The notes under the pieces are model-generated. The model was not told where the DNA came from. It saw only the letters and a list, made by a program, of their open reading frames with translations, and ran no database searches. Source: Anaeromyxobacter sp. Fw109-5 (lineage in GTDB: Bacteria; Myxococcota; Myxococcia; Myxococcales; Anaeromyxobacteraceae). From it: 64,000 nucleotides of DNA. Position numbers and translations under genes: made by a program. The stretch's first letter is position 1. Every line of letters starts with the position of its first letter. Location: contig NC_009675.1 in NCBI RefSeq assembly GCF_000017505.1, positions 1,736,001 through 1,800,000 on the forward strand. The letters run 5' to 3'. Below are positions 19,136 to 24,524 of this stretch, piece by piece.

Positions 19136-19618
19136 CTAGCGCGAGAGAGCCTTCACGGCCTCCGCCACGGCCTCGTTCACGTCGCCGAGGCAGCACGTGC
19201 CCGAGGGGTTCGTCACCTCGCACGAGCAGCGTCCCGCCCGAACCTCGGCGGTGATGCGCGCCGGGATGTCCGAGTCCCCGCGCTCGGCCACCTGGCGCCG
19301 GACGTCCGCCCGGGAGAAGCCGAAGCAGTAGCAGAGCGGCGCCGGGTCGTCGGTCTCCTTCACTCCGACGCGCACGGAGGCCGCTTCCTTCTCGACGACG
19401 CGCCCGTCGGCGCCGTAGTAGAGGACCGAGCACCCAGCCGTCTTGCAGAAGCGGCGCTCGACGGCGAGCAAGCCTTCGGCGTGACCCGGCTTCAGGATCG
19501 TCTGGATGGTCTCGTCGCCGACGACCCGACCCACCTCGCCGCAGCGCGGGCAGGCCTTCTCGCCGCTCGCGCGCGTCCTCGCGATCGCGCAACTCTCACC
19601 CGAGCAGCAGGAGCTCAT
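19136..19618 (-). CDS. CopZ-like [2Fe-2S]/zinc protein (BFD-type domain)
   Basis: A 160-residue cytosolic Cys-rich protein. The N-terminus MSSCCSGESC is followed by a zinc-binding CPRCGEVG, then a central FCKTAGCSVLYYG segment, and a C-terminal BFD-like region (LCYCFGFSRADVRRQVAERG ... CSCEVTNPSGTCCLGDV) with the C-x-C and C-x(8-9)-C spacing for a [2Fe-2S] cluster. This matches the N-terminal domain of the Archaeoglobus copper chaperone CopZ, which holds Zn and [2Fe-2S] and can reduce Cu(II). No copper-binding CxxC ferredoxin-fold domain is attached. It faces two sigma factor genes across a 300-base divergent region. Confidence 0.75.
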   Translation of the reverse strand: MSSCCSGESCAIARTRASGEKACPRCGEVGRVVGDETIQTILKPGHAEGLLAVERRFCKTAGCSVLYYGADGRVVEKEAASVRVGVKETDDPAPLCYCFGFSRADVRRQVAERGDSDIPARITAEVRAGRCSCEVTNPSGTCCLGDVNEAVAEAVKALSR

Positions 19619-19922
19619 GGCGTTTCTCCTACGACCCGCCACCCTGCGTGGCAAGGCTGGCCTGGTGGCCCGTGGCGATGTCCTGATCGCGAGCGCAGCC
19701 ATTTCGAGCGCCGAGGCGGAGCCGCGGCATCTTGGAGGCGACCTTCCACCGGATCATCGCCCGGGGCGACATTCATCTGGACGACGCGGCGCCCTTGCCG
19801 CTCGCCGGGGTGGAGTCGCCGAGGGTGCCGTCCATTACGCGACGCGACCCCGCCCGCCCGGCGACCCTTCGGGGCGGCCGGACGGAGCCGTAATTTCCGA
19901 GGGGCTCGCTGGACGGCCGCGT
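19619..19922. other. Divergent regulatory region between CopZ-like gene and sigma factor pair
   Basis: About 300 bases with no convincing gene. A GTAATTTCC at 19891-19899 resembles the -35 of the ECF-type promoters noted elsewhere in the window, but the spacing to a CGT is wrong, so I do not call a promoter. Confidence 0.4.
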
Positions 19923-20483
19923 ATGACCGAGGCGTTGACTCCTGCTCCGAACGGTGGGCTCGACTCGGAGAGCTCCTTTCTCCCTTGGGTCTCGACGCTC
20001 GCCCGCGTGCACTCGCGTGGGCTCGCCGCCGTCGCTCGAAACGAGGGGCTCGGGCCAGAGGACGCGCTCGACGCCGTCCAGGAGGCGTTCCAGACCTTCC
20101 TGCTCCTGCCGCACGCCCGGTCGCTCGTGGAGATGCTGCCGAAGGATGCGGCCGTGCTTCTCGGAACGCTGGTTCGGAACGCGGCTCGCAACCTGCGGCG
20201 GCGTCACCATCGCGCGGCACCTCACGAGCCGCTCGGCGACGAGAGTCCGCTCGCGGCCGGCGACGTCTCGGTGGATGAGGCGATCGCGCGGGCGGAGGAG
20301 CACGTCCGGCTCCTCGGCTGCGTGGACCGGCTGACGGAGACCCAACGCCGGGTCGTGCGGCTTCGGATGCTCGAGGAGCTGTCGGGGATCGAGACCGCCC
20401 GGCAACTCGGGCTCGTGCCCGGCCGCGTCGCGGTGCTCCTCCACCGGGCGAAGAAGGCGCTCCTGCAATGTCTGGTCTCGTGA
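19923..20483 (+). CDS. Sigma-70 family RNA polymerase sigma factor (ECF-like)
   Basis: A 186-residue protein with a divergent sigma region 2 (EDALDAVQEAFQTFLLLPHARSLVEMLPKDAAVLLGTLVRNAARNLRRR) and a recognisable region 4 (VDRLTETQRRVVRLRMLEELSGIETARQLGLVPGRVAVLLHRAKKALLQCL) with its helix-turn-helix. It starts at ATG 19923; a longer frame upstream is not convincing. Region 2 is poor in the usual DFV/WL aromatic residues, so its promoters may be unusual. It lies head to tail with a second sigma factor gene 35 bases away. Confidence 0.8.
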   Translation: MTEALTPAPNGGLDSESSFLPWVSTLARVHSRGLAAVARNEGLGPEDALDAVQEAFQTFLLLPHARSLVEMLPKDAAVLLGTLVRNAARNLRRRHHRAAPHEPLGDESPLAAGDVSVDEAIARAEEHVRLLGCVDRLTETQRRVVRLRMLEELSGIETARQLGLVPGRVAVLLHRAKKALLQCLVS

Positions 20484-20518
20484 CGCGCCGTCCGCTCGGC
20501 CGTTCTGACCTGTTTCCC

Positions 20519-21223
20519 ATGGCGAGGCCTCGCGAAAGCCGGCAACATCGACCGACTCCGATGCGGAGCGCGACAGATGCGGGTGGTGCCGGCGAAGGGC
20601 ACGTGAACGGGCTCGGCGACTCCGAGCTGGTGGCGCTCGTCCGGACCGGCGACCGGACGGCGTTCGGCGCCCTCGTGCGGCGACACGGCGGCGCGCTGCT
20701 CCGCTTCGCGCGCGTGTTCGTCAGGGCGAGCTCGGTGGCGGAGGAGGTCGTCCAGGAAACCTGGATGGCCGTCCTCGAGGGCCTCGACGGGTTCGAGGGG
20801 CGGGCCTCCTTCAAGACGTGGCTCTACCGGATCCTCGCGAACCAAGCCCGGACGCGGGCGAGCAGGGAGGGCCGGAGCATCCCGTTCTCGGCGCTCGCCG
20901 AGACCGGCGGTGACGACCGCGCGGTCGACCCAGACCGGTTCGACGCCGCAGGGATGTGGCGCGATCCACCGGTGGGCTGGACGGACGAGACGCCCGAGCG
21001 GCTTGCGCTCGAGGCCGAGACCCGCGGCGTGATGGAATCGGCCGTCGCGGGGCTGCCGCCCGCCCAGCGTGCCGTGCTCGTGCTCCGCGACGAGGATGGC
21101 CTCGAGACGGAGGAGATCTGTAATCTCCTGGGTCTCACCGTGACGAACCAGAGGGTGCTCCTCCACCGCGCTCGGACGCGCGTCAGGCAGGCGATCGAGG
21201 CGCACATGCGAGGCGAGCGCTGA
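20519..21223 (+). CDS. ECF sigma factor paired with a zinc-finger anti-sigma
   Basis: About 234 residues. Region 2 reads LVRTGDRTAFGALVRRHGGALLRFARVFVRASSVAEEVVQETWMAVLEGLDGFEGRASFKTWLYRILANQART, which is classic RpoE-like sequence. Region 4 is VAGLPPAQRAVLVLRDEDGLETEEICNLLGLTVTNQRVLLHRARTRVRQAI. The start could be ATG 20519, ATG 20561 or GTG 20603; I keep the first because no ribosome site decides. The stop overlaps the anti-sigma ATG (TGATG). This arrangement usually means the anti-sigma holds the sigma factor until a redox or metal signal arrives. Confidence 0.88.
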   Translation: MARPRESRQHRPTPMRSATDAGGAGEGHVNGLGDSELVALVRTGDRTAFGALVRRHGGALLRFARVFVRASSVAEEVVQETWMAVLEGLDGFEGRASFKTWLYRILANQARTRASREGRSIPFSALAETGGDDRAVDPDRFDAAGMWRDPPVGWTDETPERLALEAETRGVMESAVAGLPPAQRAVLVLRDEDGLETEEICNLLGLTVTNQRVLLHRARTRVRQAIEAHMRGER

Positions 21224-21468
21224 TGCTGACGTGCCAGGAGATCACGGAGCTCGTCACCGACTATGCGGAGGGGAACCTCTCCTTCATGGATCGGATGCGG
21301 TTCCGCATGCACATCGGCATGTGCCGGAGCTGCCGCCGTTATGTCCGGCAGGTGAAGGCGACCGCCGCCGCGCTCGGCGAGCTGCCTCCGCCGGAGATGT
21401 CCCCCGAGCTCGAGCAGGAGCTCCTCCGGCGCTTCGACAGCTGGAAGGGCACGCGCGGCTCTCGATAG
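21223..21468 (+). CDS. Zinc-finger anti-sigma factor (zf-HC2)
   Basis: An 81-residue soluble protein with the ZAS motif HIGMCRSCRRYV (H-x3-C-x2-C) plus an upstream Cys (MLTCQEITELVTDYAEG), the form seen in anti-sigma factors that react to thiol stress. No membrane segment, so it acts in the cytosol. It overlaps the sigma gene by one base and is in the same operon. Confidence 0.85.
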   Translation: MLTCQEITELVTDYAEGNLSFMDRMRFRMHIGMCRSCRRYVRQVKATAAALGELPPPEMSPELEQELLRRFDSWKGTRGSR

Positions 21469-21572: not shown

Positions 21573-21848
21573 ATGGCAACCCGCATTGCACCCGTCACGA
21601 TCACCGACGCCCCCGACGCCTCACGGCCGATGCTCGAGAGCCTGAAGGAGGCGCTGGGGTCGGTACCGAACCTCTACGCCACCATCGCCCGCTCGCCGGC
21701 GGCGCTCCAGGGCGTCCTCGCGCTGCAAGACGCCCTCGCCAGGGGCGCGCTCTCCCGGAGGGAGGTGGAGGTGCTGAACCTCCACGTCTCCGAGCTGAAC
21801 GGGTGCGGCTACTGCGTGTCGGCGCACACGATGCGTCCGCTGTTCGCG
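21573..21848 (+). pseudogene. AhpD-like / carboxymuconolactone decarboxylase family, truncated
   Basis: The first ~90 residues are normal: MATRIAPVTITDAPDASRP, then LGSVPNLYATIARSPAALQGVLALQDALARGALSRREVEVLNLHVSELNGCGYCVSAHTM, which holds the peroxidase-type CxxC plus His of AhpD. The family continues for ~90 more residues, but here the similarity stops after HTMRPLF and the frame runs into a hairpin and the antisense of bufC. So the C-terminal half is deleted. The ribosome site (AGAGAGG) lies in a long inverted repeat GACCTCTC (21526-21533)/GAGAGGTC (21562-21569) that could hide it. Probably non-functional. Confidence 0.75.
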
Positions 21849-21855
21849 GCTGGGG

Positions 21856-21882
21856 GAGCGCCCCGGAATCGCCGGGGCGCTC
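21856..21882. terminator. Hairpin terminator between the AhpD remnant and bufC
   Basis: An 11-bp perfect stem GAGCGCCCCGG/CCGGGGCGCTC with a five-base loop. It lies after the last gene of the bufferin operon on the minus strand and after the truncated AhpD on the plus strand. No long T run on either side, so the terminator role is probable rather than certain. Confidence 0.6.
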
Positions 21883-21892
21883 TCTGGCTGCA

Positions 21893-22660
21893 TCAGGCGT
21901 GGATTGCGGCGAGCCAGCCCTCGTCGGTCCAGGACGACAGCGCCGCGAAGGCCGCGGCGGCTGGGTCTTCGCGGTCCTCGAACCAGGCGCAGACGCGCAC
22001 GAGCGGCTCGTCGGCGAGCGCGGCCTCGAGCGCGTGCGCCTCGTCGAGGTCGATCCGGGCGTGGAACACCTCGTAGCCACGCCGCCAGACGGCGATGGCG
22101 GTCACGACCGTCGCCGGCGGGAGGGGCGGGTCGCCGTCCTCGAGCCGCCGCCACACCGCGGCCGCGTCGTGGTCGAGGATCAGCAACCGGACGGCGGGGA
22201 TCAGCTCGAGCCTCGCGCCGAGGAACGTGTCGGGCCCGAGCGCCTCGAAGCCCGCGTGCGTGGCCGATTGAGCTGGAGCCTCGAAGAACACCTCCGACCG
22301 CGCCCACTCGAGCGTGGCGAGGTCGGCGAGGTCGTCGCGGCTCGACGGCTGGAAGGCGCGCAGGAACGCGGGGAGGTGGCGGCCGAACTGCCCGAGGTCG
22401 GGGTGATCCGATGGGTGCTCGCGAGCGTACGCCTCGGCGAGCGCGAGAAAGCGCTCGTCACCGAGCAAGGCGGCCGCGTTGGGAAAGTCCTCGCGGAGCG
22501 CGTCGGCGAGTCGCCACAGGTACATGTTCGCGTAGATCTCCATCCGCTCGGTGGCGGGCAGGTCGCCGGTGCCGACGAGGAGCTCGTCGGCGGTCCGCGG
22601 CGGGGCGGGGGCGTGTGTCGCGAGCGCGTGGAACGCGGTCTGGGCCTCGGCGAGCGTCAT
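21893..22660 (-). CDS. bufC: Bufferin biosynthesis partner BufC (DUF2063/HvfC-like)
   Basis: A 255-residue cytosolic protein. Its N-terminal half has the DUF2063 pattern: LPATERMEIYANMYLWRLADALREDFPNAAALLGDERFLALAEAYAREHPSDHPDLGQFGRHLPAFLR. This family pairs with MNIO enzymes (here BufB) and presumably presents the precursor peptide. The ATG overlaps the bufB stop (ATGA), a coupled pair. The C-terminal half is less conserved, as usual. It is the third gene of the operon bufA-bufB-bufC and ends before the hairpin at 21856. Confidence 0.85.
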   Translation of the reverse strand: MTLAEAQTAFHALATHAPAPPRTADELLVGTGDLPATERMEIYANMYLWRLADALREDFPNAAALLGDERFLALAEAYAREHPSDHPDLGQFGRHLPAFLRAFQPSSRDDLADLATLEWARSEVFFEAPAQSATHAGFEALGPDTFLGARLELIPAVRLLILDHDAAAVWRRLEDGDPPLPPATVVTAIAVWRRGYEVFHARIDLDEAHALEAALADEPLVRVCAWFEDREDPAAAAFAALSSWTDEGWLAAIHA

Positions 22661-23529
22661 GGCAGGGCTCCCTGCTGCAAGGCGGCGAGCGCGGCCGCCT
22701 CCACCTCCGCGGCGCGCCGGCTCTCCTGCACGAGCCGCCCGAGCGGTGGAACGTGGTCGTCCCACTCGATCAGCGTGGAGATTCGCCCGAAGCGACGCAC
22801 CGTCTCGGCGTAGAGCTCCCACACGGCGGCGGGGACCTCCTCGCCGTGCGTGTCGAGCAGGTACCGGCCCTTGTCGGAGTGTCCGGCGAGGTGGATCTGT
22901 CCGATCCGGCTCGCTGGGAGGGCCGCCAGGTACGCGTATGGATCGAAGCCGTGGTTCCGGGCGGAGACGTAGACGTTGTTCACGTCGAGCAGGATGCCGC
23001 AGTCGGCGCGGCGAGCGACCTCGGCCAGGAATTCCCATTCCGGCATCTCGGACGCTCGGAACGCGACGTACGACGAGACGTTCTCGAGCAGGAGCTGACG
23101 GCCGAGCACCTCCTGGACGCGGAGGATGCGCCTGACGACGTGCCGCAGCGCCTCCTCGGTGTACGGCAGCGGCCAGAGGTCGTGCGCGTACCTGCCGCCG
23201 TGCGACCCCCAGCAGAGGTGATCGGAGATCCAGGCGGGCTCGATGCGGCTCGTGAGGTCCGTCAGCAGGGCGAGATACCGCTCCGAGAGCGGGTCGGTCG
23301 ACCCGATGGAGAGCGACACCCCGTGCAGCACCACGGGCACGTCGCGGCGGACCTTCTCCAGCACCGCCAGCGGACGCCCACCCGGCGCCATGAAGTTCTC
23401 GCTGATCGCCTCGACCCAGTCGACCGGTGGCTCGACCGCGAGGTGCTCCGCGAAGTGCTTTGCGCGGAGTCCGACGCCGTGGCCGAGAAGCCTGCGCGTG
23501 AAAGCCATGAAAGCTCGGGGCCGGCGCAC
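22657..23529 (-). CDS. bufB: MNIO-family iron oxidase BufB (DUF692)
   Basis: A 290-residue member of the DUF692 (MbnB/TglH/BufB) multinuclear non-heme iron oxidases, which convert Cys in precursor peptides into heterocycles or similar groups. Seen in the sequence: GVGLRAKHFAEHL, VDWVEAISENFMAPGG with the conserved Glu-Asn, VVLHGVSLSIGS with its His, ISDHLCWG, LLLENVSSY, and ILLDVNNVYVSARNHG, then IGQIHLAGHSDKG and IEWDD. These are the His/Asp/Glu/Asn positions that hold the iron atoms in the family. It lies 25 bases downstream of the small Cys-containing precursor gene and overlaps bufC. Confidence in the family is high; that it makes a bufferin is from context. Confidence 0.92.
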   Translation of the reverse strand: MRRPRAFMAFTRRLLGHGVGLRAKHFAEHLAVEPPVDWVEAISENFMAPGGRPLAVLEKVRRDVPVVLHGVSLSIGSTDPLSERYLALLTDLTSRIEPAWISDHLCWGSHGGRYAHDLWPLPYTEEALRHVVRRILRVQEVLGRQLLLENVSSYVAFRASEMPEWEFLAEVARRADCGILLDVNNVYVSARNHGFDPYAYLAALPASRIGQIHLAGHSDKGRYLLDTHGEEVPAAVWELYAETVRRFGRISTLIEWDDHVPPLGRLVQESRRAAEVEAAALAALQQGALP

Positions 23530-23554
23530 CTGACGGCGCCGGCCCCGCTCCGGA

Positions 23555-23782
23555 TCACATGCTGGCAGCGAGGACCTTGCCGCCCTTGTCGACGCACGCC
23601 TTCTCGCTCTTCTCCTCGGTGAAGCCCTTCCCCTTGCAGGAGTTGACGCCGGCGCACTTCACGACCTTCGCGCTCTCCTTCTCCCGCTGGGCGGCCTTCT
23701 CGCTTGCGAGCGCGGTGCCGGACGCGAACAGGGAGAACACGGTGGACGCGATGACCGCGCCCTTCATGGCTTCACGGATCAT
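23555..23782 (-). CDS. bufA: BufA2-type bufferin precursor (metallophore RiPP)
   Basis: A 75-residue exported peptide with a signal sequence (VIASTVFSLFASGTALAS) and a core containing KCAGVNSCKGKGF and KACVDKGGKV, three cysteines in all. Bufferins are Cys-modified peptides that bind copper in the periplasm; the BufA2 subgroup has KCxGVNSCKGxG segments. The copy here is compact: it lacks the internal second CKG repeat that I recall in longer BufA2 precursors. The order bufA-bufB-bufC matches known operons. The DoxX-like bufD is absent; instead a YceI-like exported protein is upstream. Confidence 0.85.
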   Translation of the reverse strand: MIREAMKGAVIASTVFSLFASGTALASEKAAQREKESAKVVKCAGVNSCKGKGFTEEKSEKACVDKGGKVLAASM

Positions 23783-23858
23783 GGTGCTTCCTTTCGTGGC
23801 GCTGCTGGTTGGTGCTGCGGTGAGCAGGGCCGCTCGCGCGGCTCCGGGGTGAGATCAC

Positions 23859-24524
23859 TCACTTCCTGGCGCTCTCGGCGCCGTCGGCCGTGGCGAACAG
23901 CGAGAGCTCGATCGTCCCCTCCTCGGCGACGACCTGCGCGAGGGATTGGACTCGGGCGAGCCAGCCCTCCGTGTGCTTCGGGCCGATCTGGTAGGCGTCG
24001 CGGTCGAAGCCCGCGATCGTGGCGCGGATGCGGACGGTCTTCTTGTCGCCGTATGCGCCGGCGGGAAAGAGGAAGGCGGTGCCGTTCACCTTCTCCTTGC
24101 GGCCGTCGATGGGCGCCCTCCCGCAGACGGTGAACGGGATCTCGCCCGTGAAGGACACCGGCCGCTCGGGGGCGAGCGCCCCGATCTTCACGCGGTCGAA
24201 CGAGGCCACGAACCGGCATTCCCCCGGATCGGTCTTCTTGTTCGTGACCCACTGCTGAAAGTGCTCGGTCTTGGTGTCCTCGTTGTCCACCTTGATGCTC
24301 GTGAGGGGGACCGAGCAGCGACCGGAGGCGAGGCCGGTCTTCTCCTCGTAGCGCAGGTCGCAGGCGACCGCGGCGCTCTGGGCGGTGATCCGCTCCCCGA
24401 GCTTGGCGTCGAAGACCGCGGTGAACGTGTTGTTCCCCGTGTCGGGATCCACGCGGAGGTCCTCCGCGAGGGCGGCGGACGCGAGGGCGAGCGAAAAGGC
24501 CGTTAGAGACGGCGTACGCACCAT
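23859..24524 (-). CDS. YceI-like exported lipocalin-fold protein
   Basis: A 221-residue exported protein; the chosen ATG (24524) has GGAGGAGAG upstream and opens a signal peptide (LTAFSLALASAALAED). The rest resembles YceI: NTFTAVFDAKLGERITAQ, then SIKVDNEDTKTEHFQQWV, FTGEIPFTVCGR and a final VVAEEGTIELSLFA. YceI proteins bind isoprenoid-like lipids in the periplasm. It is 76 bases upstream of bufA on the same strand, so it may be in the bufferin operon. Many Cys are missing, so it is not itself a metallophore. The family call is moderate; another beta-barrel family cannot be excluded. Confidence 0.6.
   Translation of the reverse strand: MVRTPSLTAFSLALASAALAEDLRVDPDTGNNTFTAVFDAKLGERITAQSAAVACDLRYEEKTGLASGRCSVPLTSIKVDNEDTKTEHFQQWVTNKKTDPGECRFVASFDRVKIGALAPERPVSFTGEIPFTVCGRAPIDGRKEKVNGTAFLFPAGAYGDKKTVRIRATIAGFDRDAYQIGPKHTEGWLARVQSLAQVVAEEGTIELSLFATADGAESARK

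What the first reader, a model, noticed from the sequence alone, without database searches (positions are those of the whole stretch)
21893..24524. Bufferin operon with a compact BufA2 precursor, a YceI-like lead gene and no bufD
The precursor has only three cysteines and a shortened core, yet it is next to complete bufB and bufC. A YceI-like exported protein takes the place of the usual DoxX-like bufD and could bind or present the product. Variation in partner genes could mean a different modified peptide.
Basis: partly seen in the sequence, partly recalled or inferred. Interest (0 to 1): 0.75.

Follow-up and report, generated by a model that had tools for sequence, protein, structure and literature searches.

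The report
YceI-led bufferin operon, half-deleted precursor
A myxobacterial gene cluster for a copper-buffering peptide carries a conserved extra periplasmic protein (YceI fold) and its own sigma-factor switch, and in this strain alone the peptide gene has lost half of its cysteine core through a small in-frame deletion between repeats.

Summary
On the minus strand lie yceI-like, bufA2, bufB and bufC, with no bufD nearby, and the precursor has three cysteines. The compact precursor is not a type matched to these partner genes. All 29 other Myxococcota BufA2 cores that could be read have exactly six Cys, including sister operons with the same YceI gene. The window gene is shorter by exactly 57 nt, the spacing of a 22-nt direct repeat still present in relatives, so one C-x-G-x-N-x-C-K-G repeat was deleted in frame. 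It is the only BufA2 in the genome; BufB and BufC are intact and show no excess relaxation.

The YceI-like protein is a real conserved partner. It has the YceI fold (Z up to 17.6) but no Pfam match, four invariant Cys, and sits beside buf genes in 12 of 15 informative loci. Classical YceI genes lead other myxobacterial MNIO operons. An ECF sigma/zf-HC2 anti-sigma pair lies near six of twelve of these operons. Here a promoter-like sequence, GTAAT-N12-CGCTGGAC, occurs exactly twice in the genome: before the sigma operon and before yceI. Known kind, new variant; whether the half precursor is modified is untested.

The parts
23859..24524 (-). yceI-like lead gene, 221 aa, signal peptide by eye, four invariant Cys (C55, C70, C103, C134)
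   Evidence: YceI fold: Foldseek E 1.7e-8 to 1y0g; VIA Z 17.6 to 5ixg, 13 YceI-type chains on top; invariant Cys in 13 sequences; no Pfam match
23555..23782 (-). compact bufA2 precursor, 75 aa, Cys pattern KCAGVNSCKGKGF...ACVDKGG (3 Cys)
   Evidence: NF050166 44.4 bits, below cutoff 60; nearest relatives have 6 Cys and 19 more residues
23624..23645 (-). single remaining copy of the 22-nt repeat; joint of the 57-nt in-frame deletion
   Evidence: relatives keep two copies 57 nt apart; codon comparison
23509..23554 (-). bufA-bufB intercistronic hairpin (about 11-bp G+C stem), no U-tract
   Evidence: -33.6 kcal/mol, z -3.79; strong hairpin in 9 of 10 loci (window included) with diverged stems; yceI-bufA gap as control shows none
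22657..23508 (-). bufB, MNIO maturase (ORF opens at GTG 23529; ATG 23508 by homology)
   Evidence: NF050167 378.8 bits; PF05114 368 bits; alignable His/Asp/Glu motifs with 3bww; WDD motif of Cys-Lys MNIOs
21893..22669 (-). bufC, DUF2063/PME1 partner protein, overlaps bufB
   Evidence: PF09836 77 bits; 68% identity over its length to L041
24569..24593 (-). promoter-like element GTAATCACGGCCAAGCGCGCTGGAC, 69 nt before yceI
   Evidence: pattern found exactly twice in the 5.28-Mb genome; GTAAY in 9 of 12 yceI upstream regions, 0.7 expected
19890..19914 (+). second copy of the promoter-like element, before the sigma operon
19923..20483 (+). sigma-like gene (only region 4 detected), first gene of the sigma operon
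   Evidence: PF08281 42 bits
20468..21223 (+). ECF sigma factor
   Evidence: Sigma70_r2 and r4_2 over cutoff; homologues 46-64% beside the same operon in 5 relatives
21223..21468 (+). zf-HC2 anti-sigma factor, 81 aa
   Evidence: PF13490 44 bits; homologues beside the same operon

Best explanation
This is a metal-stress bufferin (captophorin) operon of the Buf2 kind, in a myxobacterial variant led by a YceI-fold periplasmic protein and controlled by a neighbouring ECF sigma/zf-HC2 anti-sigma pair. On stress the anti-sigma releases the ECF sigma, which reads GTAAT-type promoters before its own operon and before yceI (inferred from sequence). The mRNA is divided by a hairpin after bufA, which probably favours precursor over enzyme (inferred). 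BufB with BufC oxidises Cys of the BufA2 core to 5-thiooxazoles before Sec export (inferred from characterised relatives). The modified peptide binds Cu(I) in the periplasm, where the YceI-like barrel, stabilised by two probable disulphides, carries a hydrophobic or redox ligand or handles the peptide (weakly inferred). In this strain bufA lost one internal repeat by a 57-nt in-frame deletion between 22-nt direct repeats. What remains is the outer pair C1 and C6 and one Cys-Lys site. The likely product is a half bufferin with at most one or two thiooxazoles (-4 Da each) in place of about four, plus perhaps a C1-C6 disulphide; metal capacity would be reduced, possibly near nil.
For: Deletion: window 75 aa against 94 aa in sisters; the 22-nt repeats in L041 and L042 lie exactly 57 nt apart; 29 of 29 readable Myxococcota cores have six Cys; only one BufA2 and one MNIO in the genome. 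Enzymes intact: NF050167 378.8 bits, DUF2063 77 bits; lineage N/S ratio BufB 0.36 against 0.25 and 0.44 in sisters, BufC 0.46 against 0.27 and 0.70. BufB keeps 'IEWDDH', the Asp of Cys-Lys-type MNIOs (PMC13097082), matching the one remaining CK site. YceI: fold, 12 of 15 informative loci beside buf genes, classical YceI before MNIO in 19 of 22 Myxococcaceae genomes and in 4 of 20 other Buf2 loci. Regulation: two exact promoter copies in 5.28 Mb; GTAAY upstream in 9/12 and 8/19 loci against 0.7 and 2.0 expected; Caulobacter sigma-F reads GTAACC-N16-CGAA before its buf operons (PMC3511200). Hairpin.
Against: No mass, metal or expression data. The one-repeat version of another precursor (FonA) was not modified by FonBC, while two repeats were (PMC13097082), so the half core may not be processed at all. 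The ligand of the YceI-like protein is unknown; it occurs without buf genes in two loci (L066, L067). The promoter pattern was read off the two sites before being searched. In the window the sigma operon faces the buf operon, whereas in the two nearest relatives it follows bufC on the same strand.
Confidence: 0.68

Rival explanations
1. The deletion inactivated the precursor: bufA is a recent pseudogene in all but reading frame, the product is not modified and the operon is on its way to loss.
For: Half of the Cys are gone while every other Myxococcota core read keeps six; a single-repeat FonA was not a substrate for FonBC (PMC13097082); the operon is accessory, absent from most genomes of the genus.
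Against: Frame, signal peptide, start region, outer Cys and one CK site are kept; no stop or frameshift in yceI, bufB or bufC; nonsynonymous change in this lineage is not raised compared with the sisters. A very recent deletion would look the same.
Confidence: 0.35
2. The 3-Cys core is a sequencing or assembly error.
For: The missing stretch lies between short direct repeats, where such errors arise; no second isolate was available.
Against: The genome is one contig; a 57-nt repeat spacing is shorter than the reads of any usual method, so collapse is unlikely; the joint is in frame and the retained copy has its own synonymous differences.
Confidence: 0.05
3. A compact bufferin type that evolved together with the YceI partner for a different modification or metal.
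For: Unusual partner set.
Against: All relatives with the same YceI-led operon encode six-Cys BufA2, so partner and core length do not go together.
Confidence: 0.05
4. On the YceI gene alone: it is a passenger that shares the promoter and stress response but has no role in peptide handling, acting as a general lipocalin that protects envelope lipids or quinones.
For: YceI proteins of solved structure include polyisoprenoid-binding ones; the YceI-like gene also stands without buf genes in L066 and L067.
Against: YceI genes are found next to several precursor types and from several YceI subfamilies, in one locus directly coupled to bufB (L064: yceI end overlaps bufB start).
Confidence: 0.4

Closest known systems
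Buf2 (BufA2, Buf_6/12Cys) bufferin clusters (Antoine et al. 2025, PMC12452194)
   Same: Sec-exported precursor, MNIO and DUF2063 partner in the order bufABC; homologous core motif
   Different: Three Cys in place of six or twelve; YceI-fold lead gene; cis-encoded ECF sigma/zf-HC2 pair, where the survey reports sigma genes with Buf1 but not Buf2 clusters; no DoxX
Caulobacter sigma-F-controlled bufferin operons (PMC3511200)
   Same: ECF sigma autoregulated and controlling buf operons; -35 element GTAAC/T
   Different: zf-HC2 anti-sigma in place of NrsF; different -10 region; sigma genes next to a Buf2 operon
YceI family (E. coli YceI 1y0g, B. cenocepacia BcnB 5ixg, T. thermophilus TT1927b 1wub)
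   Same: Predicted fold over nearly the whole mature protein, Z 12-17.6
   Different: 7-15% identity, no Pfam PF04264 match, four invariant Cys, tied to MNIO operons
Myxococcaceae yceI - EGSCG lipoprotein - MNIO - DUF2063 operons (L053)
   Same: YceI gene directly before precursor and MNIO
   Different: Classical YceI without the four Cys; precursor resembles EGKCG/oxazolin types and is a probable lipoprotein

Membership tests
Buf2 bufferin precursor (BufA2) | six (or twelve) conserved Cys in the core | tested here: not met
   three Cys; 44.4 bits against cutoff 60; it is a deletion derivative of a six-Cys BufA2
Buf2 bufferin precursor (BufA2) | N-terminal Sec signal peptide | tested here: inconclusive
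   judged by eye only (MIREAMKGAVIASTVFSLFASGTALA-SE) and alignable with relatives; no signal-peptide program was at hand
Bufferin biosynthetic cluster | MNIO maturase BufB | tested here: met
   NF050167 378.8 bits, cutoff 310
Bufferin biosynthetic cluster | DUF2063 partner protein BufC after bufB | tested here: met
   PF09836 77 bits, cutoff 27.2; overlapping genes
Bufferin biosynthetic cluster | gene order bufA-bufB-bufC | tested here: met
   same in relatives except L064, where bufA follows bufC
Bufferin biosynthetic cluster | Cys-derived thiooxazoles and copper binding | not testable with these tools
   needs expression and mass spectrometry
Bufferin biosynthetic cluster | DoxX gene (frequent, not essential) | tested here: not met
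   none near the operon in the window or in the YceI-led relatives; four unlinked DoxX genes in the genome
YceI family | YceI beta-barrel fold | tested here: met
   model pLDDT 82.8; all 11 Foldseek hits at E<=0.001 are YceI-type; Z 12-17.6
YceI family | match to Pfam PF04264 | tested here: not met
   no match at E<=1
YceI family | polyisoprenoid or quinone ligand | not testable with these tools
   needs purified protein
ECF sigma regulon | shared promoter-like sequence before sigma operon and target operon | tested here: met
   GTAAT-N12-CGCTGGAC exactly twice in the genome; promoter activity itself not tested

The most novel reading that the evidence does not exclude
The 3-Cys half core is still processed and is the smallest natural bufferin, and the four-Cys YceI protein is a dedicated periplasmic handler (receptor, metal-transfer or redox partner) of bufferins in myxobacteria, doing the work that DoxX does elsewhere.
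Probability: 0.2. Interest if true: 0.7.

Novelty: new variant of a known kind. Interest (0 to 1): 0.5.

Why it matters
Bufferin clusters are described as precursor, MNIO, DUF2063 partner and often DoxX, whose role in them is not settled. A second conserved accessory protein with a known ligand-binding fold, found before several types of MNIO operon in one phylum, gives a handle on what happens to the peptide in the periplasm. The half-deleted precursor is a natural test of how many Cys-Lys units a bufferin needs to be modified and to bind copper. The two-site sigma regulon makes induction easy to test.

Tried and rejected
A second, full-length BufA2 elsewhere in the genome: none. A DoxX gene in or near the operon: none by tblastn; the DoxX queries taken from L133-L135 were read in a wrong frame, so only the L132, L139 and L154 DoxX proteins served as probes. 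Compact relatives on plasmids: no match, but no canonical BufA2 was found either, so this is a weak test. YceI-like protein on plasmids: no match. A promoter pattern with 11 spacer bases was tried first and found nothing relevant, because I had miscounted; 12 is right. A single clade of YceI-led bufB genes: not found, the label needs 5 changes on the BufB tree, many forks being open. Literature: no paper held joins YceI, copper and ECF sigma; the survey's main text does not mention YceI; the original bufferin paper is not held; supplementary tables were not readable.

Full report
What is there. The window lies in a 5,277,990-base single-contig genome. On the minus strand run yceI-like (24524-23859), bufA (23782-23555), bufB (from ATG 23508, ORF from 23529, to 22657) and bufC (22669-21893). 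BufB scores 378.8 bits to NF050167, over its cutoff of 310; BufC matches DUF2063 at 77 bits; BufA reaches only 44.4 bits of the required 60 to NF050166. The genome has one MNIO gene and one BufA2.

The precursor. In ten relatives whose full core was aligned, and in an eleventh (L069), BufA2 has the core C-x-G-x-N-x-C-K-G-x-G-x-C-x6-C-x3-N-x-C-K/G-G with a sixth Cys near the C-terminus. Over the phylum, 29 of the 29 BufA2 cores that could be read have exactly six Cys, and the window gene is one of the few matches under the family cutoff. L041 and L042 carry a 22-nt direct repeat with a start-to-start distance of 57 nt, the repeat being the two N-x-C-K-G-x-G units of the core. The window gene is 57 nt shorter than theirs and has one copy, at 23624-23645. 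Parsimony gives an in-frame deletion between the repeats in this lineage. What is left is C1, one Cys-Lys site and C6.

Is the pathway still under selection? Lineage-specific changes among the window and its two sisters give nonsynonymous/synonymous ratios for the window of 0.36 (BufB), 0.46 (BufC), 0.41 (BufA) and 0.29 (YceI-like), inside the range of the sisters (0.25-0.44, 0.27-0.70, 0.37-0.61, 0.22-1.17). So nothing shows decay, but a recent deletion would leave no trace. BufB aligns with the solved MNIO 3bww through its conserved His, Asp and Glu motifs. It keeps the Asp next to the catalytic-base Asp that marks Cys-Lys-type MNIOs (PMC13097082; read off by motif, not by structure), which fits the one remaining Cys-Lys site. 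In that work a precursor with one repeat was not modified while one with two was; this is the main reason to doubt that the half core is processed.

The YceI-like protein. Pfam does not see it, but the model (pLDDT 82.8) matches YceI-type structures only among the significant hits, with Z 12.0-17.6 for thirteen YceI-type chains and 10.6 for the next. Four Cys are invariant over 13 sequences. In the predicted strand order C55 faces C70 and C103 faces C134 across hairpins, so two disulphides are plausible (inference). Of 15 informative loci of this four-Cys type, the window included, 12 have bufB beside it, one has only a bufC fragment (L060) and two have no buf gene (L066, L067); one more locus (L051/L070) is cut by its contig end. 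All named hits of this type in GTDB are Myxococcota-type MAGs or Anaeromyxobacter, and none was found on plasmids.

YceI more widely. In Myxococcaceae, classical YceI genes sit directly before an MNIO gene in 19 of the 22 genomes examined. In L053, the one read in full, the gene between them encodes an EGSCG-rich probable lipoprotein, and a BufC-like ORF follows. Among 20 Buf2 loci without the four-Cys protein, four of one clade have one or two classical YceI genes first, and two others have DoxX after bufC; no locus had both (these YceI and DoxX calls rest on sequence motifs, not on a Pfam scan). YceI is therefore a recurrent lead gene of myxobacterial MNIO operons. Whether it replaces DoxX is open, since most loci have neither.

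Regulation. An ECF sigma gene (20468-21223) and a zf-HC2 anti-sigma gene (21223-21468) follow a sigma-like gene (19923-20483). Homologues of the ECF/anti-sigma pair stand beside the same operon in five relatives, in differing orientation, in two of them on the same strand right after bufC. The sequence GTAAT-N12-CGCTGGAC occurs exactly twice in the genome, 69 nt before yceI and before the sigma operon, with no further site at one mismatch. GTAAY occurs upstream in 9 of 12 YceI-led operons against 0.7 expected, and in 8 of 19 other Buf2 loci against 2.0, several with CGTAC 16-17 nt on. Caulobacter sigma-F reads GTAACC-N16-CGAA before its own gene and its buf operons (PMC3511200). The published survey found sigma genes with Buf1 but not Buf2 clusters (PMC12452194); here they do occur with Buf2, also in L139, L141, L144 and L145.

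A hairpin between bufA and bufB. In 9 of 10 loci the short gap folds into a strong G+C stem with different sequences (window -33.6 kcal/mol, z -3.79); the yceI-bufA gap, used as control in four loci, shows none. No U-tract follows in the window, so I read it as an mRNA-stability or partial-attenuation element favouring precursor over enzyme (inference).

Mechanism, with status. Shown by sequence: the gene set, the deletion, the predicted fold, the two promoter-like copies, the hairpin. Inferred from characterised relatives: ECF-controlled induction by metal stress, thiooxazole formation by BufB-BufC, export and Cu(I) binding. Guess: what the YceI protein carries, and how much the half precursor can do. 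Expected product if modified: at most one or two thiooxazoles and perhaps a C1-C6 disulphide, by analogy with Buf1, where the outer Cys form a disulphide and the central ones are modified (PMC12452194).

Verdict. A real bufferin-type operon and a new variant of a known kind. By the six-Cys criterion the precursor is not a canonical BufA2 but a deletion derivative of one.

Noticed in passing
window 23509-23554: Strong hairpin between bufA and bufB, kept in 9 of 10 loci with diverged stems.
   Followed up: yes
window 21574-21860: Fragment of a carboxymuconolactone decarboxylase gene (PF02627 positions 1-49 of 84) that breaks off next to the bufC end; possible joint of a rearrangement that also turned the sigma operon round.
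   Followed up: partly
window 19136-19702: CopZ-type (zf_CopZ) protein divergent from the sigma operon: a possible copper-related neighbour.
   Followed up: no
L053:6279-8909: Myxococcaceae operon yceI - EGSCG-rich probable lipoprotein - MNIO - BufC-like; YceI and MNIO genes adjacent in 19 of 22 genomes examined.
   Followed up: partly
L142 and L151: Two tandem classical YceI genes before bufA2-bufB-bufC in one myxobacterial clade.
   Followed up: partly
L064:5986-8538: Gene order yceI-bufB-bufC-bufA with overlapping ends: the precursor gene comes last, unlike the usual bufABC.
   Followed up: no
L137, L138, L154 upstream of bufA: GTAAC followed 16-17 nt later by CGTACC: a likely ECF promoter of Buf2 operons without a linked YceI gene.
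   Followed up: no
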